From positions 6,193,190 through 6,257,189 of the forward strand of contig CM065311.1 of the NCBI GenBank assembly GCA_033032175.1: a stretch of 64,000 bases of DNA, read 5' to 3'. Each line of letters starts with the position of its first letter. The stretch's first letter is position 1. The notes under the pieces were generated by a model. That model was not told where the DNA came from, made no database searches, and saw only the letters and a program-made list of their open reading frames with translations. Of this stretch, positions 871 through 16,400 are shown piece by piece. Origin of the DNA: Saturnia japonica (lineage: Eukaryota; Arthropoda; Insecta; Lepidoptera; Saturniidae). The position numbers were made by a program, and so were the translations under genes.

Positions 871-3800
871 TCATAGAGGTTCGAATTTATACCTGTTTGG
901 TACTAGGGGCAGGCTAAATTTGATTGATACCAAAATGTGAGCCAATGAATTTGGTATGTGGTTAAAATTTAATTTATTTATGGTTACGTTCATTTATTTA
1001 GATGGCTATAGTGACTGTGTAGGTAGCCCAAAATGTTAAATGTCTTAATAAAACTTGATTGCATATTTATACATATTTTGATAACCTTCACCGCCACGGG
1101 GAACGCAGCGCGGTGCGGCGAGCGAGGCGGCAATTCATGTGACACAGTTTGCACCCCACAAGTTTACGCCACGGGCATTACGTTTACCACCGAGACTATA
1201 GTCGTACAAGTTTGTGCTAGACCGTCCTATGTTTTAGACGTTGGCGGGAACGTGGTAGCACGACACTACACTACACAGTAGGTACACTAAAGTAAACAGT
1301 ATGTTATCTCGTTAGTATTCTTGAAATAATTATCTGCAGCAGCCTAGCCACGCCTAAACACGCACTAGGACTGCCCTCTGACTGTATTTCTTGCGTTACC
1401 TACTTACGTATTTGATAATGCTATATTAAATTGTCATTATTATCTTTCCATCAAAATACATAAATATATAATTTTGTAAGTTTTATAATTTAAATTATTT
1501 CTACTTAGGTTTTATTTCAAAAGTGATTATGGATTACTAAAAAGAAAATTTATTATACATTTAAAATATTAATTGAGCTTTAAAGAATATACTGAAAAAT
1601 GCAAATAGTTTATTTGGGCTAATGTCCGATTAACACAATAAGGGATACATTTTTTGCCGGCACACCATTGGCCAATTTTTCTCGTATAACAACTTCAGTG
1701 AAACTGTCAATTTTATTATTTTTTTTAGGGAAAAGATTTTTCCGCGTTGAATTGAAACTCACTGTGCTTTTTTATGCTTCCATAGATATTATGTCTTTAA
1801 GTATTTTTTAAATACTGTTTTCCCAAAAACCAGTCACTTCAGGCACGCCTTTCGCCAAATTAATGTCATTTGCACATTCAAAAGTAAAAGGGTCATTTTT
1901 ACGAATTTGAAAATACATACTTGTACTCTTTGTACACAACATACTTAGTCTAACATGAAATGGAATTGCTCATCTTCAAATCGTAACCGCGTGTGCATCA
2001 AACCCGATAACATTTAGAGTAACTCGTCCCTACCAACATCTACCGTCCGGTAGGACAAACTAGTTCTAGTCTAGTCGAACTGTAGTTATAAATTAGATAA
2101 CTGCGGTGCACTAGCGACAATTGTGTACCGAAGTTTATAGAGATCTCGAAGCGCGTCATTTCGCCCGTTTGTATGGAGACGTCGTAGTTGCCAACTTAGT
2201 GCCTTATGTACTAAATCTAGCTAATTTTTAACATTTCAATTCTCAAAGTTCCATTTTAGAGCCTAGTTCATCACATTATCAAAGTTTTATATTGCTTGGA
2301 GAATAGTAGTTTTTTGTTTCAAGATAAAATATTTGGAAATTTGGATATTTGGAAATTGTTTTGTATATTTATTCCAGCAATCTCTTTACTACTTGTTTTC
2401 ATTAATGAAGTGGATGACCAGACTACCAAATAGCTGGCCTGGCTAAAATTTCGGTAATAAAATTTCAATATTAAATTAATTGCGGCGAATATAACTAAAC
2501 AGGTTTGTCTTCTGTACTATTCGCCGTGTCTACTGTTCGACGCCGTGGCATTCGTTGGACAAATTTCGCACGTCGCGCCCTGCCGAACACCGGTACGCGT
2601 GGCATGGTTAGTACATTTCTGTACATTTGTTTTAATCGCTAGACGCTTCGTCATTCGCACCGCGCGAATATTCACTGAAGCGAACGATGATGATGCGCGT
2701 TGGACATGGGTATTAAAACAAGTTCTTTCCGATATCTTCGTTTTATAATTATATTCCCGTATGCAGAAGTGTTCATATTCCCGTCATCTTTCTATTTTCA
2801 TCTATGAACATTTTTATATTGAAATCGCACCGTTCTAAATACGTGTACTTGCTGGAAGTCGCGTGTGAACTGAATGCAACGCAACCACGGAGTCTCTAGA
2901 ATTTCGACTCGTGTGAAACACTCATAGATTTTTTAATTATCATATATCTATTAATTAAGATTTAACAAAAACAAAAAAAAGGAAGCATGCTAAAACTAAA
3001 GTACCAATAAAAGAGGTAATAAGCCTCGATTACTGTGTCATTAAGTGCCTGTAATTAAGTGACCCAGTCAAGCTTGCATATTGATAAGAGGATGTTTTAC
3101 CTACTTACTTATCTCCATAATCACAAATACGTATGAAAATAATCGTAATAGTGAACAGCTATCGTCATACGTCAGAATTGATTAAAAATCTACATTTTTA
3201 TCAGCAGAATTTGAGAATCTGTACTTTATAATTAATTGCACTGTACACAACCGCGATGAGTTTCCATTTATTAACGGTTGAACGGTTTTATTATTTTTTT
3301 ACATGGTATAATTCATTAACTTTAATTCATTTCAAACTAGTTTCGTAATAACTTTCGCCAAAATTAATTACAATCATTTATTCTTGTTGAATTTGAAGTA
3401 CTTTATAAAGCTCACTCTATATCACGATTGACGATGTTTTAAAATTTAAATTCACAGTCGATTAATTTAACTGACTAAGTTCGAATGCATGTTAAATATC
3501 TTTATCGAAAGGCGGAATAATTATTATCATTAGCGCATAAATCAATACAAATACACACGATGACAAGCCATTATTTATTTATTATTCATATTTTTGTTAT
3601 AAGTTTTGTACTAACATTAAAGTTGACTTACCTTGCAAAATTGACTAACGTTAACAAGGTCGTCTCTATTAACTGCGTTATTATTAAAGGGCCTTCGACT
3701 CTCAATAAAGGTACTCTGAAAGTTTCATTACATTTGTTATTGCATGAAAAAAAGTAATACTAGGACCGATTCGGGTAAAGATATTAGCCCAAACAGTATA

Positions 3801-7400: not shown

Positions 7401-10400
7401 ATATAGCGCTCGTCACTTGTATTGTGGATTGGGCCAATTCTTTTGTTTCCGACCGCATTCAGTTCAGTATTCTCTTACGTGAACGTGTGAACGTCTAGTG
7501 CAAAGTGTTTGTTAATTATTAGATATTATAAACAAAATTTTTTGTATAAAAACCGATTTAATATAGTTGATTCTTGAATAAAATAAAAAAGGTAATTGAA
7601 GTATTTTTGTTATTACAGGTAATACTTACATTTTTAATTCATTTAGTATCTAATAGCAGTATTTTAGATTATTTTCAAAAACCCTTCAATTATTTTATTC
7701 TCTTTTAATTACTGTGTATTTTAAAACTATATTATTGAGCCATCCTAAATGATAAATAGGTACCTACCTACAGAAGGTATTTTAGACGGATTGCAGTAAT
7801 ATTTTTTTGTTTAGCCTGGGCAAGTATTATTATCTACTAAATGTATTTATTTATTAAAATAGGTTTTAAAGGCTTTGCTGGCGTAAAAAGATTTTATTTA
7901 TATTTCTACACGTTTTACGATATTACTTTAGGTAATAATGTTTAATTGTAAATAATATACTTATTTATTATTTACTTACTTATTATTTTCCGATCTAATA
8001 GCAATGGGATTTGTTTACAAAAACGGAATATATTAAGTTTAGATTTTTGATTGAAAGTAATCATAATCGTATCATACAATTTCGCGTACGTTGATTTGCC
8101 TCCGAGATGAGTAGCTCGAGCACTCGTGGCACGGATATCACAAACAACGGTGGAGTATTTAACTAGTATTTTTCTAATAATACTTAAATATATATTTACA
8201 CCCAGACGCAGGATTGTTAATTTATATAAAAATATATTTCACAAAGCTAGTTACGTAACGTGTAGGTGTTTATTTACTGTTATAATTAGTTTATAAAATC
8301 AACGTATCACTTACTAACTAAAAATATTTTTTAGTATACCCAGAACGAAATATGCCTCGGGGAATTCATACTTCGAAAAGAGAAAGCGGGTTTCAACAGA
8401 GAAAAGCCAAAAAGGCCAAAATGGATGAAATTCAGAGCATGTCCGGTTCTCTTTTCAAATATGTCACAAAAGTAGATAGCGGCCAAAGTTCAAGTAAAGT
8501 ACCCGAGTCTCCTGCTGACGAAAGTTATGATTCTCATCTTAGAGACTCACATTCAGATAGCAACATCGACAATACAGAATAAATGAAGGCGACCCAGGAC
8601 CTTGACGGAATCAAAATAAATAATGAAAATGACGCTGTTAATGCTACTTTCGGAGATAGCATTAGCTTCAAATAATCAGTTCAACACTTGAGAGATGTTT
8701 CACATTGGAGTTTACCGGTACCTGATAATGTTCGCATTGACATAATAAAAAAGGGCAGTGAACATTTCCAGAACAAAGAAGGACCGTTTCCTACTGTATC
8801 TCGTCATGGTTCAAAGATTAAAGGTGATTCTCGTCATCTTTCACAGGAATGGTTTTATAAACAGATGCCTAGTGGTGAAAAAAATCTACGATCATGGATG
8901 GTATTTTCTCCTATATTAAATAACCTGTACTGTTTTTGCTGTCGTTTATTTGCTGTCAGTAACATACAAACAACATTTACAACTAGATTTCAGAAGTGGT
9001 GGAAACTAAATTCTAAAGTATTGGACCATGAAACTTCATGTGAACATTTAGAAAATTTCGAAAAGTGGAAAACTTTGGAAATGAGATTAAAATCTCACAC
9101 CACAATAGATGATGCAACCTTGCAATTAATGAATACGGAAAAACAGAAGTGGAAAAATCTTTTATCTAGATTATTAGATATAACATTGTTTTTGGCTAAA
9201 CAAAACCTAGCATTTCGTGGACATGATGAAACCCAAGGGTCGTCTAATAAAGGTAATTTCTTAGAACTAGTTAAACTGCTGTCAAAGTATGATGCAGTAC
9301 TCAAAGAACATATACTATATTTGGAGCAGGAAAAATCACCTAAAGTAACATATTTATCGCCAGAATATACAAAATGAGTTTATAAATGTTTTAGCTAATC
9401 ACTTAAAATTGTTGGCATTACGAATTATGTGCCTTTGCCTAAAAACAATAATAACTTTTAAAAAAGTATGTATGTGGCAATCTGCTCTGTGTACTCTGTA
9501 TGTGTCACTTCAATAAAAAACTTTAAATTATAAAAGTGAAGTGTTATTCATTAATAAATATTAAAACTCTGCATAAAATTACAATAATAACAAAATTAAA
9601 TAATCACAGGTTATGGGCCCAGCACGCTTCCACTGAGCACTCTGCTTGTTGTTCTGAGTCAAAAAGCAACACTCTTACTTTCTCCATTAGTGTCCGGTTA
9701 TACCGTTCAGCTTTACCATTCTGTTGAGGGCTGTAAGGTATAGTATAGTCTAGTCTTATACCTCTTTTACGAGACCATTCTTTTAGTTCATTACTTGTAT
9801 ATTCACCACCTCCATCACATCTTATCATGCTAACTTTCATATATGAGCTTCTTTCAACTTCTTTTATGTATTCCTTTAGACAAGTAAATACTTCACTTTT
9901 GTGAGTTATACAATGTGTCTGTGTATAGTCAGTGTAGTCATCAATAAAAGTGAGTATATATTTTTTTCCATCCCAACTGATAGGTGTTATTGGGCCACAC
10001 ACATCGGTATGTACAATTTCTAATTTTCTTTCAGCTTTCTTACGGTGTGTATTGAAAGGTAGACGAGTCTGTTTAGCTCTGGTACATATGTCGCAGGTAG
10101 ATGTAAGTGTATCTATTTCTTCTTTTGTTACATTAATTCCATCAACTGATTCTATAATTTTCTTCATTGTTTGTTTTACTGGGTGACCAAGTTTGATATG
10201 CCAGTCTAATGCTGTTTCTTTTTTATTTGTCAATAAAACATTTTCATTGATTTCAGTTTTTAAATTTATTTTATATAACCCTTCAGCTTTCCTTCCTTTC
10301 AGAATTATTTTATTATTCTTTTCTATTATTACTTTTTCTTTAGTAAATGTAACCTTTCCATTGTTTTCTGTTATATCATTTACAGACAATAGGCTTCTTT

Positions 10401-13400
10401 CCAACTCTGGAATGTACAAAACATTTTCAAAGTTGCATGTTTATGTTTGTATGGTACCCTTAAATTTTGATTTAATCGTGTTATCTTTCTTAGCTGTTTG
10501 AATATCTATATTGCATTCTGTAGGTTTCTTCAAGATATTGTAGTTATTAGTCATATGAGATGAACATCCACTGTTACAATAAAATTCTCTGTCTGTGGTA
10601 TGTTTTGATTAGGTTTAATTTCTGTGAAAAATGATATAACCTTTTCTTTCTTCCTAAAATAGCAGTCCTTTTCTGTATGATTAGTTCTTTTACAGATTGT
10701 ACACTTCTTTTGTTTGAAATAACAATTTCTTTCATTATGATTAGGCTTTTGACATATTGAGCATAATTTATTTTTGTTGAAATAACAGTCTTTATCATTA
10801 TGGTTGTTTTTCTTACAGATTTTACAATATAACTTTTTCCTTTTGATTATTTGCTTTAAATGCAATTGGATTCTTATTGTTACATAACTGTCTATTTTCT
10901 TCAGAAAGCAATCTACTTTTTAAATTTTGTAAATTTTTGTCTTGTGATGTTGTTGATTCCCATGCAGTTACAAAATAGTTCCATTTTTCTTATTTTTGAT
11001 ATAATCATACTTTCTTCAATTTTCTGACCAAGTTTGCTAAGCCTGAATGTTATGTTTTCTATTTCTGTTAGGAAATCCATGATTGTCTGACCTGTATACT
11101 TAAAATTGAAAAAGTCTTGAAGGATTTGGCATTCATTACGTTCTTCACCGCCATCATATATTTCACACAACTTTTTATACATTTCTCGTGATGTTTCACA
11201 ACATAACAACTGATTACAGTGTTTTTTGTCAATTGTTGTAATTATAATCCTTTGGGCTATGGCGTCCTTTTTCAGCCACGCCTCTACGTCGAAGAAGAAT
11301 AAGAAGCAATAACTGGAGAAGATAGAGAGAAGTGGCTAAAAGCAATAGAAGAAGAAAAACTTTCATTACTAGAAAATAATACATGGGAAACTGTTTCGTC
11401 TGTTCCTGAAAACAAGAAAATATTTACCAGTAGATGGGTATTAAAAATTAAAGATAATGGAAAATTCAAAGCCCGCTTAGTAATAAGAGGTTTTGAACAA
11501 AAAGAAGGAATTGACTATAATGAGACATATAGCCCTGTTATTAATAGTAGCCCATTGAGAATACTATTCACCCTAGCACAAAATAAGAACTTTGTTATGA
11601 AAACATTTGATATAAAAACTGCCTTTCTATATGGAGAACTAGATGAAGATATATATATGTATCCTCCAGAAGGAATGGAAAATATTAAAGAAATATGTAA
11701 ACTTAAGAAAGCCTTGTATGGTTTGAAACAGGCACCAAGAAAGTGGAACAAAACACTTACAGAATTTCTTCACGAAGAAGGTCTGAAACAATTACAGACT
11801 GAAGCCTGCATATTTAAAAATGATAACAATACCATATATTTAGGAATTCATGTAGATGATGGAATATTACTAGGGAAAGATGAAGAGGTTGTAGAAAAAT
11901 TATTATATAAAATTAAAAACCATTTTAATACTACTATTGAGATAAATCCCTCAAAATATATTGGAATAGAAATTGTACGTACTAAAAACAACCTAAAACT
12001 AAAACAAGAAGGAATGATAAACAAATTACTGGACAATTATAACCTAAATGATGCAAAAATAGCTAAAACACCAATAGATACAATAAAAACTGATAAAGAC
12101 CGCTCTCAGAACATTAAATTCCCATTTAAACAATTACTTGGAAGCTTAACATACATAGCCAATAAAACAAGACCTGACATAAGTTTTGCTGTAAATAATT
12201 GCAGCAGAAATACAGAAAATCCAACAGAAGCTGATGTTATCAATATAAAAAGAATCTTGAGATACCTAAAAGGTACCAAAGAAAAAGGTTTAGAATACTT
12301 AAAGAAAGATGAACAATATAAACTCACAGCTTTCTGTGACTCTGACTATGCAGGTGACACTGAAACAAGAAGAAGCACCACAGTGTACATTATATACTTT
12401 TGTGGTTGTCCAATCAGCTGGTGTACAAGGAAGCAACCAGTGGTTGCACTTTCTACCACTGAGGCAGAATATATCGCTGCTGCGGAATTTGTTAAAGAAC
12501 TGTTGTATCTAAAAAGTGTGTGTAAAGAACTGTTAAATGTGAGTGTAAATGTTGAACTACATGTGGACAATCAGAGTGCTATAACATTAATTAATACTGG
12601 AGTTTTAAACAGATGCTCTAAACATATAGATGTTAGATATAAATTCATTCATGAGAAAGTTTCCAATGGTGAACTTAAAGTAATTTACTGCCCTACTGAT
12701 CAACAGATTGCAGACTTACTTACTAAGCCCTTGAATAATACTAAATTTAAATACCTTTTATCAAAAATTGTTAACTGAACTTTATTGAGTGAAATATTTA
12801 TTGAAATAGGTACATACTTAGTGTGTATTGTTTTGTTGTGTATTTAACAGCACATCTAAAATTATTATTCTAAGCATAAGAGCTACTTATTGTTATGTTC
12901 ACATAATATTAACTATGATTTATTGTTATGATTAGCTCTTGTATTACTCTATTTAATTTTTTCTAAGTTTTTTAGGTTTTCAAATTTGAATAGTAAAATA
13001 AGAGGCAAAGCTTACAAAATTAGAGGGGTGTGTTGGCATTACGAATTATGTGCCTTTGCCTAAAAACATTAATAACTTTTAAAAAAGTATGTATGTGGCA
13101 ATCTGCTCTGTGTACTCTGTATGTGTCACTTCAATAAAAAACTTTAAATTATAAAAGTGAAGTGTTATTCATTAATAAATATTAAAACTCTGCATAAAAT
13201 TACAATAATAACAAAATTAAATAATCACAAAAATATCAGCTTGTCAACGAAATTAAATCAGCCAAATATTTCGGAATCATATTTGATAGCACACCTGACG
13301 TTTCACATGTCGATCAAATGTCTGAAGTGATTCGTTATGTAAAAATTAATAATAGAAAAGTAGAAGTCAAAGAAGTATTCTTAGGATTCTTTCCTTTACA

Positions 13401-16400
13401 TGGAAAAAAGCAGCTGATTTAAGCACTGAAATACTAAAGAAGCTTGAAAACGATGGCTTAGATATTATGATGTGTCGTTCTCAAGGTTATGATAATGCTG
13501 CAGTTATGAGTGGAGTGCAAGCTATTATAAAAGAAAAAAAACAATAAAGCAATTTTTATTGGTTGTATAGATCATTCAATTAATTTATGTGGCCAACATT
13601 CGTTCGCACAAAATGTGACTTCTGTTACATTTATCGGAGCAGTGGAAACAATATTTAACTTTTTTTCAACTTCTACAAGCCGTTGGGAAGTGCTCCTCAA
13701 TCACAGCAAAGCATCTGTTAAAAGACTTTCGACAACGCGCTGGAGTGCTCATTATGGTGCAGTAAAAGTATTGGCTGAAAATTTTGATGGGATAATATCT
13801 ACAATTGAGGAACTATGTGACCAAGACGTAAATTTAGAAAGTAGGGGTGCTGCACAAAATCTTATGCCTGCTGTGTGCAATTTCTCATTTCTTTGTTTTC
13901 TTTTCTTTTGGAATGATGTGCTAAGGGAAGTGAACAATGCTCAGATAGCATTACAAAGTAAAGGTTTATGTGTTAATGAAATAATCATAAAACTAGAAGC
14001 ACTTCGTCTATTCATTGGAGAGAAAAGGTTGCATCTAGCAGAAGAGGCAATAGATTTTGCTGTACAAAAATCGGAAAAATACAACATTTCGATGGAACGA
14101 CGAATTCGTCGCAAGAAACGCATGCCCGGTGAGTTAGCATCGTCCACCGATGCTGGACTTACACTTAGAGCGGAACTTCAAAAGGACATGTTAGAATGTC
14201 TTGACAGATTCAATATTGAACTCGAAACAAGAGTAAAGTTCATTAAAGACGTAGCTTCATTGTTTGAGGTTGTGCAGTCAAAGACCTTGCTTTCGGCAAA
14301 CACTGAACAGTTAAAATTTGCTATATCAAAATTTACTAACCTTTACGATTAAGTATCAGAAACAGAACTCCTTTTAGAAATACCAAGATTGAGAAGACAT
14401 TTAAAAGCAGCTAATATTACTGTCTCTAATTGGGTGACACTGGACTTTTTGAAATTTATTGTGGAATGGGATTTTACAGAATCTCTTCTGAATCTAAGGG
14501 TCGCACTAAAGTTATATAATAATATGTGCATCAGTTGCTTCATGTGAGAGAAGTTTCAGCAAATTAAAATTAATTAAAAATTACTTGCGGTCTACAATGA
14601 CTGAAACCAGGTTAAACAATCTTGGTATTTTAACGATAGAACATGAAGCAACACAAAATATAAATTTTGAAGACGTGATTTCGGAGTTTGCTAGTGTCAA
14701 AGCTAGAAGGAAGAAATTTTATTTTTTAACAAAGTAATTTGTTTCACATAATATTCAAATATTTGTAATAGGTACTCATATTTTAATAAAAAGTAAATGA
14801 TTATAACTTTTTTTATTTTAACAGTTTCGATTGAGTTTTGGGGTGACACCTATAAAATCTGCCCCGGGTGCCACCTATGCTAGCTACGCCACTGCTCCCA
14901 TGATTAATCTGTTTTAAAAGTCAGTTGCTAAGCCACATGCTATAAAGTACATTAATAAAGGGAAAAAACATAAGATTAATTATTACAGTGATAAAATACT
15001 ACAGTAGGAAAATATTAAAGGTTGCAGGTAAACCTTAAAAGCAGTAGGGGAAAAACCTGTGAGCGGTAAATTGAACCCAAATTAGTTTAGTGGAACCACA
15101 AACTTTGTACAAAAGCAATGTATGATATAATGGGGAAAAATGTTTCATGCGCCAGAATAAGCAACATTGTTATGTTTTTATTCATTTATTTTCTCATAAC
15201 TTTTGTTATTATAGACAGTTTTGCAATTTTATTTATTAGATTTATTAAAATAATGAAACTATTAGATTTATGTATGGACACATAGTTAGTTGTAACATTT
15301 AATAACATTTTAGCTAAAATAAATAGTTAAAAATATAAAGTTGTTGTTTTCTCATTTCTACTTTTGTTGTATGCATCATTTTTCCCACTAAGGCTTCAAT
15401 TGTTTATTTATTTAAACTTTACACTATTAATTACAGATCCAATCAAACAATAAAATTATGTGATCAGTACAAAGGATGTCCTTATTGCTAAAAGCAATTT
15501 CTTCAAGGCAACCTTTGGAAGGATATGTTTCAGAGAGAAAATTAGGGGTAGTATTGGGTGTAATGAGCCACTATAACATAATGTTATGTATGTAATACTG
15601 TTATGTTGTACTGTTATGTTAAGCCAGTATGAAATATATACTACATTATTATTATTTATAAATATAATATGAACAAAATATAATTGAAATACATATTCTG
15701 TAATATTAATTGTTCAGCTAAATTAAAAGTTTCAAGGTACATAGTTGGAAAATTTTCAAACCAAAAGTTATTTTTTAATAATAACTAAACAATGACATAT
15801 TGATCCAATGAGACTCGAGCAATAATCATGCCCTAAGTTTTTTTTTCGCTTTTATTGTTGTGTAAAATTCTGTACAGAATAAAATCATGAGGAAAAATAT
15901 GACATACCACTATCTGAGTAATGAAAGTTTTCTAAAAATTTTAGGCATTCTTCCAGTCCTGCAAATATGGTGAATTCTCCTTGGAATGGATTTGTGCGAA
16001 AAAATAAATCAAAAACAGCAACATCATTAACTTTGCCCGATTTCCAGTATGCATATGCCATAGTTATTTGGTAAAAATCTGAAAATTTATACAATATTAC
16101 TTTTTACACTCACAGTTTTATAGAAATTATAATTAATTAATTATATTATGAAAATCAGGCAACTGACTGGCATTTATATTTATTGAAGTAAATTGTATCA
16201 CAAACTTGACATTCTAAAATAAAACTGATGGAAAATTTTACCAAGAATTGATAGACATATTGGTCAAATAAATATTTAAAAACTTAAAAATTATAATTAC
16301 ATTATTATACAATTTTAAATGGAATGATATCCACCATTGAGATTAATAGGTACATTATTTAAACAGTTTAGAGAGGTCTAAGTTAATCTTAATTATATAA

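What the first reader, a model, noticed from the sequence alone, without database searches (positions are those of the whole stretch)
9609..9646. Copia copy carries the complement of a whole initiator tRNA-Met 5' half at an inversion joint
After the 5' LTR the sequence matches the reverse complement of the 39-nt 5' half of initiator tRNA-Met at 37 of 39 positions, as I remember that tRNA. It ends at the tRNA's first base, where inverted integrase sequence begins. Copia is known to be primed by this half-tRNA. Plus-strand synthesis that ran off the end of the primer would give this sequence, and the free end could then have joined internal element DNA backwards. I infer that this copy preserves an aberrant reverse-transcription or self-integration product.
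Basis: partly seen in the sequence, partly recalled or inferred. Interest (0 to 1): 0.86.

Follow-up and report, generated by a model that had tools for sequence, protein, structure and literature searches.

The report
Retrotransposon copies keeping their tRNA primer
This rearranged retrotransposon copy carries a DNA copy of the whole half-tRNA that seems to have started its replication, and other copies in the same genome do too, which suggests that copying the primer too far is a repeatable way for such elements to be scrambled.

Summary
Window 9609-9646 is the reverse complement of the 39-base initiator tRNA-Met 5' half, with 37 bases identical, one missing and one changed. It lies between an intact Copia 5' LTR and an inverted gag-integrase block, in one insertion (9410-13229; 5-bp duplication AAAAT; LTRs 198/199 identical). 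It is not a normal long primer site: the full-length sibling has 14 nt. It is also not unique. Of 121 primer sites preceded by A or C, 11 continue for at least 19 nt of tRNA complement: this copy, nine other loci and one tRNA gene. A later search added one locus, giving about 10 independent events. Seven of them end at tRNA base 10 or base 1. In the six cases where I could read tail and template, the tail's last 1-5 bases match the template (chance about 5e-6). At this copy's joint the integrase site is the best match to the tRNA 5' end among 4161 positions. Best explanation: plus-strand strong-stop DNA copied the half-tRNA too far and its free end primed elsewhere; here on the sense strand, giving the inversion. 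Self-integration is not supported.

The parts
9405..9409 (.). left target-site duplication AAAAT
   Evidence: flanks printed; matches 13230-13234
9410..9608 (+). 5' LTR, 199 bp, TG...CA ends
   Evidence: 198/199 identical to 13031-13229; single difference at 9448
9609..9622 (+). normal 14-nt primer-binding site, complement of initiator tRNA-Met bases 39-26
   Evidence: same 14 nt after the LTR in sibling L009
9623..9646 (+). over-extended tail: complement of tRNA bases 25-1, with one base missing at 9/10 and a substitution at 12
   Evidence: tRNA gene sequences; alignment; absent from sibling L009
9647..11291 (-). inverted gag to integrase block (sibling L009 positions 975-2626)
   Evidence: blastn 96.1%; Pfam rve, gag_pre-integrs, Pol_BBD and Retrotran_gag_2 on the minus strand
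11292..11300 (.). 9-nt filler AAGAAGAAT at the second joint
   Evidence: matches neither flank of the joint in L009; the related string GAAGAAGAA occurs at L009 3264
11301..13030 (+). reverse transcriptase to RNase H region and polypurine tract in normal orientation (ORF 11303-12778; purine-rich 13020-13030)
   Evidence: 98.3% to L009 3217-4947; Pfam RVT_2 4.1e-58; purine tract the same in L009
13031..13229 (+). 3' LTR
13230..13234 (.). right target-site duplication AAAAT

Best explanation
The copy is an integrated aberrant reverse-transcription product. Inferred steps: (1) minus-strand DNA was primed by the 5' half (bases 1-39) of initiator tRNA-Met. (2) Plus-strand strong-stop DNA, started at the polypurine tract, copied the LTR and then kept copying the still-attached half-tRNA past the usual limit to its first base. 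(3) The resulting 3' tail could not pair at the primer-site complement and instead paired with a resembling site in the integrase gene of a sense strand (genomic RNA or plus-strand DNA). (4) Extension from there copied integrase back to gag, giving the inversion. (5) A second switch near the start of gag, with a 9-nt filler, moved synthesis onto minus-strand DNA at the RT gene and finished the element. (6) Integrase inserted the product with a 5-bp duplication. Shown: the sequence anatomy, siblings without the tail, about nine parallel events, terminal matches at the six joints tested. Inferred: the intermediate, its order, and whether the template was RNA or DNA. The same tail-then-mispriming route, to an in-sense site, would explain the parallel deleted copies.
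For: Sibling L009 has a 14-nt site, so the tail is new. In four other families, normal copies have sites of 11, 11, 10 and 6 contiguous nt, while the tail copies L037, L034, L040 and L041 carry a continuous tRNA complement of 27-39 nt (at most one substitution); so the tRNA itself was the template. Tails start at base 39; 9 of the 10 pattern loci that I count as tails (window included, L042 not) have a recognised LTR end there, and L143 a U3 piece. The six joints whose template I read pass straight into element DNA, without tRNA-gene flank. At this joint the tRNA 5' end aligns to the integrase site over 22 nt (16 matches, one gap); the score ranks 1 of 4161 sense positions and no antisense position reaches it. 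Over six events, terminal matches total 14 nt against 1.8 expected (P about 5e-6), and all six have at least 1 (P about 1e-4). Intact LTRs and a 5-bp duplication show that the rearranged molecule integrated as a unit; four other tail copies (L034, L037, L040, L041) show paired LTRs and 5-bp duplications.
Against: No intermediate was observed. If the tail is scored with its own two changes, the integrase site ranks 3 instead of 1. By RNA duplex energy the site is not singled out: 13 of 4161 windows are at least as stable. Terminal matches at three other joints (L037, L040, L041) are only 1-2 nt; L037 shows no anchored similarity beyond that (557 of 4527 positions score as well), and L034 has a 6-nt filler. 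The templates of L036, L038/L039 and L042 were not found. The second joint of this copy has an unexplained filler. Only two other 5' ends of the window's family were read: L009, and the C20 pair with a mutated site.
Confidence: 0.74

Rival explanations
1. End joining: an LTR-plus-tail duplex end was joined by cellular microhomology-mediated end joining to a broken internal fragment of another cDNA, and the patched molecule was then integrated.
For: Short terminal matches and fillers are also typical of end joining (general knowledge); L034 contains several joined, partly inverted blocks.
Against: Similarity at this joint runs 22 nt into the tail side (rank 1 of 4161), which pairing of a single-stranded tail predicts and 2-nt end joining does not.
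Confidence: 0.16
2. Template jump in the other direction: a nascent sense strand of integrase jumped onto the 3' end of an over-extended strong-stop DNA and copied tail and LTR.
For: Gives the same final sequence and also needs the full-length tail; tails that end at base 1 would be end-to-end jumps.
Against: Does not predict the 22-nt similarity on the tail side.
Confidence: 0.08
3. Recombination of the primer site with a chromosomal tRNA gene, or an inherited long primer site, followed by inversion on the chromosome.
For: tRNA-Met genes are abundant (clusters on C14).
Against: None of the normal family members read or listed has the tail, and the 6 joints read go straight from tRNA base 10, 13 or 1 into element DNA, without tRNA-gene flank.
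Confidence: 0.02

Closest known systems
Half-tRNA priming of Drosophila copia by the 5' half of initiator tRNA-Met
   Same: Primer-site sequence complementary to the anticodon-arm part of initiator tRNA-Met; tails start at base 39. That copia uses a half-tRNA is stated in a passage of PMC5371799; which half and which tRNA is from recall.
   Different: The known site records only the pairing bases. Here the whole primer down to base 1 is written into DNA, at rearranged joints.
HIV-1 over-extended plus-strand strong-stop DNA (read-through of m1A58 to the tRNA 5' end)
   Same: Plus-strand DNA copies the tRNA primer beyond the primer site; in HIV-1 an unmodified tRNA is copied to its 5' end and that product is not listed among the active templates (passages of PMC13191261).
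   Different: The passages describe such products in vitro and in TRMT6-mutant cells. Here they were integrated in a genome after ectopic priming, from a half-tRNA whose relevant marks would be those at G26 and G9.
[quoted passage not shown] only the title seen, in the reference list of PMC5371799)
   Same: Same superfamily (recalled); the normal copies read here also do not inherit tRNA sequence beyond their own site.
   Different: The copies described here are exceptions that do inherit it.
Rearranged proviruses and template-switched LTR elements (deletions, inversions)
   Same: Deletions and inversions in otherwise integrated copies; HIV-1 proviruses with inversions and a PBS-transfer model are described in passages of PMC9278108.
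   Different: The passages read mention no tRNA tail at the joint.

Membership tests
Ty1/copia LTR retrotransposon | RVT_2-type reverse transcriptase, rve integrase and copia-type gag | tested here: met
   Pfam RVT_2 4.1e-58, rve 9e-14, Retrotran_gag_2 1.7e-17
Ty1/copia LTR retrotransposon | integrase upstream of reverse transcriptase | tested here: met
   in sibling L009 the gag-integrase block (975-2626, same sense as the element) precedes RT (from 3217); in the window the block is inverted
Ty1/copia LTR retrotransposon | paired LTRs with TG..CA ends and 5-bp target duplication | tested here: met
Half-tRNA(iMet)-primed element | primer site complementary to internal bases ending at base 39 of initiator tRNA-Met | tested here: met
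   GGTTATGGGCCCAG directly after the LTR in L009 and the window
Half-tRNA(iMet)-primed element | primer is the cleaved 5' half, shown biochemically | not testable with these tools
   tails running from base 39 to base 1 are what a 5'-half primer predicts
Over-extended plus-strand strong-stop product | LTR end continuous with tRNA complement beyond the primer site, absent in siblings | tested here: met
Over-extended plus-strand strong-stop product | endpoints at modified tRNA bases or at the tRNA 5' end | tested here: inconclusive
   of about 10 events, 4 end at base 1 and 3 at base 10 (one step before G9), the others at 13, 11 and about 8; modification of this tRNA in this species is unknown
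Self-integration (autointegration) product | an LTR terminus joined directly to internal element DNA | tested here: not met
   internal DNA is joined to the end of the tRNA copy, not to the LTR terminus

The most novel reading that the evidence does not exclude
In half-tRNA-primed Copia elements, normal inheritance keeps no more than 6-15 bases of primer sequence. When reverse transcriptase slips past that limit it stops at a second barrier (G9, methylated in yeast and mouse initiator tRNA) or at the tRNA's first base. The resulting tail is a standing source of deleted, inverted and non-autonomous element copies. Host tRNA modification would then set how often elements wreck themselves, and genomes would keep a readable record of primer use.
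Probability: 0.4. Interest if true: 0.78.

Novelty: new variant of a known kind. Interest (0 to 1): 0.68.

Why it matters
A primer site records only the bases that pair. These copies record the whole primer, from its cleavage point to its first base, in several Copia families of one genome, so they support half-tRNA priming from sequence alone. They also suggest what happens when plus-strand strong-stop DNA overshoots: it is not simply lost but can prime elsewhere and be integrated as a deleted or inverted copy. That makes a little-explored step (what ends plus-strand strong-stop DNA when the primer is a half-tRNA) testable by a simple genome search in any species.

Tried and rejected
Long normal primer site: rejected; the normal copies read have 14 nt or less in the five families with a normal 5' end read and 14-15 nt in the survey. 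Variant tRNA gene as source of the two changes: none of the 35 tRNA-Met genes tallied has them. Self-integration: rejected (no LTR terminus at the joint). Rfam search of 9000-14000: 3 matches, all below gathering score, none a tRNA. Viral contigs: pattern 0 matches, RT relatives 0. The inverted pair of copies on C20 (L011) was rejected as a parallel case: the inverted repeat extends beyond the element into flanking DNA.

m1G9 as the cause of the window's two changes: left open. It is suggestive, since the changes lie at bases 9/10 and 12, but three other full-length tails read bases 9 and 10 correctly (L034, L041, L143). L038/L039 can be read as ending at base 10, or as running on to base 7 with a change at base 9. 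L042 also has a change at base 12.

Literature: ten searches listed no title or abstract start that reports tRNA tails at joints of integrated elements; the library holds only openly licensed papers, and of six papers I read passages, of the rest listings only.

Full report
What is there. The window contains one Copia insertion, 9410-13229. Its two 199-bp LTRs differ at one base (198/199; position 9448) and it is flanked by AAAAT on both sides. Right after the 5' LTR, 9609-9646 is the reverse complement of the 39-base 5' half of initiator tRNA-Met, with 37 bases identical, one missing (base 9 or 10) and one changed (base 12). The tRNA sequence was checked against 35 tRNA-Met genes of the same genome; 18 have this exact half and none has the window's variant. 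At 9647 an inverted block begins (9647-11291, gag to integrase on the minus strand, 96.1% to L009 975-2626). A 9-nt filler (11292-11300) follows, and then the reverse transcriptase, RNase H region and polypurine tract in normal orientation (98.3% to L009 3217-4947).

Is the tail normal? The window's genome, G000 (580 Mb), has no name here. That it is a lepidopteran is only a guess from the best protein hit, 51% to an Arctia plantaginis protein. A full-length sibling on C25 (L009) has LTR, then GGTTATGGGCCCAG (14 nt), then ACCCAGATACC. The C20 pair (L011) has a mutated site followed by the same leader. In L009 the block lies in normal order; the window copy lacks L009 747-974 and the 590 bases 2627-3216 between the block and RT. 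Among the 51 matches listed for a 141-base query over the joint, only the window itself spans it (40 of 46 first candidates were scored). So the tail is new and, as far as seen, belongs to this copy alone.

How the joint was made. The base of integrase next to the joint is L009 2626. The site that follows it, AGAAGAGATGTGGAGTGAAGC, resembles tRNA bases 1-22 (16 matches, one gap). Anchored at the joint, it has the best score among 4161 sense positions of L009, and no antisense position reaches that score. Scored with the tail's own two changes it ranks 3, and by RNA duplex energy 13 of 4161 windows are at least as stable. A 3' tail that is the complement of the tRNA would pair with this site on a sense strand, and its extension would copy integrase backwards into gag. 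The tail keeps the tRNA base at the internal mismatch, as a primer would. The integrase site is the same in the four siblings that I aligned.

Not a single freak. A pattern search of the whole genome for the primer site preceded by A, C or T found 239 places; 121 are preceded by A or C. The longer pattern with at least 19 nt of tRNA complement found 11: the window, one variant tRNA gene (L025) and nine other loci. I read 87 of the 121. Exact matches run 14 nt in 74 and 15 nt in 2; none stops at 16-18; of the remaining 11, one is the tRNA gene and 10 are the tail loci, which reach 27 nt or more if one change is allowed. By the 34 unread places hold no exact match of 19 nt or more. L038 and L039 are 99.7% alike over 1500 bases and count as one event. 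A homology search found one further tail that the pattern missed, L143 on C22. That makes about 10 events. Families with a diverged site escape the pattern, so this is a lower bound.

Anatomy of the others. L037: LTR, 27-nt tail, end of RNase H, LTR; LTRs 223/223 identical; duplication ATAAT. L041: 39-nt tail with one change, then protease region in sense; LTRs 229/229; AACAT. L040: 30-nt tail with one change, then integrase in sense; LTRs 95.9% over 98 bases; ACAAT. L034: 39-nt tail, 6-nt filler, gag and integrase in sense, then a fold-back made of LTR end and primer site, RT antisense, a repeated gag-integrase block and the 3' LTR; LTRs 182/182; TCATT. L035: only 30 bases of 5' LTR, 30-nt tail, RNase H. 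L143: a U3 piece, 39-nt tail with three changes, protease region. L038/L039: RT in sense, last 37 bases of an LTR like that of L040, 30-nt tail, other sequence. L036: an LTR end like that of L037, 29-nt tail, unassigned sequence. L042: no LTR recognised, tail of about 32 nt with one change, unassigned sequence. Of the seven events whose tail runs into identified element DNA, six continue in the sense direction (deletions) and one, the window's, is inverted.

The tails come from the tRNA itself. In the families of L037, L034, L040 and L041 the normal copies read have primer sites of 11, 11, 10 and 6 contiguous bases (L135/L138, L147, L149, L140/L144/L145). In the L034 family all 38 listed 5'-end hits stop after 11 bases (a capped list). 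The tail copies nevertheless carry the tRNA complement straight through those positions, with no family leader. So those tails cannot have come from the element's own site.

Microhomology. For six events I could read both tail and template: window, L035, L037, L040, L041, L143. The terminal exact matches are 2, 3, 1, 1, 2 and 5 nt, 14 in all. Random positions in Copia DNA of this genome give 1.8 on average; P(sum at least 14) is 5e-6 and P(all at least 1) is 1e-4 in 200,000 draws. L034 was left out because of its filler; L036, L038/L039 and L042 because their templates were not found. L035 matches 6 of 7 terminal bases (13 of 1839 positions score as well). L037 has no anchored similarity (557 of 4527 score as well); an ungapped count over its 27 bases, chosen after looking, is reached by 35 of 4527.

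Endpoints. Tails end at base 1 (window, L034, L041, L143), base 10 (L035, L040, L038/L039), and 13, 11 and about 8 (L037, L036, L042). If endpoints were uniform over 25 positions, three at base 10 has P 0.008 and four at base 1 has P 0.0007 (computed with n = 11, post hoc). Base 9 of initiator tRNA carries m1G in mouse (passages of PMC11347157), and m1G9, m2G10 and m22G26 are named for yeast initiator tRNA (passage of PMC10602860). The common 14-nt site ends one base before the base numbered 26 in the standard scheme (my count). This suggests, without proof, that reverse transcriptase normally halts at G26 and, once past it, halts at G9 or runs off the end. Modification of this tRNA in this species is unknown, and families with shorter sites need another limit.

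Comparison. HIV-1 plus-strand strong-stop DNA is ended by m1A58; an unmodified tRNA is copied to its 5' end, and that product is not among the active templates (passages of PMC13191261). That copia uses a half-tRNA is stated in PMC5371799 (passage). The case here joins the two: over-extension on a half-tRNA, rescued by ectopic priming and integrated. I saw no earlier report in the listings of ten searches of an openly licensed library, which is weak evidence of absence.

Verdict. Observation confirmed. Interpretation supported, with ectopic priming instead of self-integration, and extended to a recurrent process. The identity of the template strand at the window's first joint and the origin of its 9-nt filler stay open.

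Noticed in passing
L043, L046 and 13 more of the first 30 primer-site hits; G000 C8:20228838-20232933: A repeat family carries GGTTATGGGCCCAG preceded by T, with cttccactgcgctaccggctcataatctgctacaat or similar just upstream, which itself holds a piece like the tRNA complement: 15 of the 30 loci read. 118 of the 239 hits are T-preceded, most of them unread; 11 lie about 408 bp apart in a row on C8.
   Followed up: no
L034 (oriented) 3049-3151: Inside the rearranged copy two LTR-end-plus-primer-site arms meet head to head at GGGCCC; GGTTATGGGCCCATAACC is a perfect 18-nt palindrome, so strong-stop ends of such elements could prime on each other.
   Followed up: partly
87 A/C-preceded primer sites: Among the 74 sites that match exactly 14 nt the next base is G 27, A 26, T 21; C there would lengthen the match to 15. 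Only two sites (L096, L132) have C and match 15, far fewer than a quarter.
   Followed up: no
L055 and L065: Two copies have a normal 14-nt primer site followed by a sequence other than their family's leader, as if a strong-stop DNA of normal length had also been misplaced.
   Followed up: no
L011 (C20:14835000-14844900): Two copies of the window's family lie head to head as arms of a large inverted duplication (2841 bp, 99.8%) that extends past the element, so it is probably a chromosomal palindrome and not a reverse-transcription product.
   Followed up: partly
families of L037, L034, L040, L041: Families with short primer sites (6-11 nt) supply 7 of the about 10 tail events, perhaps because a short site makes normal transfer fail more often; copy numbers were not compared.
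   Followed up: no
window 8340-9400 and 13235-14890: The insertion interrupts what reads like an old DNA-transposon transposase gene (impression from the sequence, not tested).
   Followed up: no
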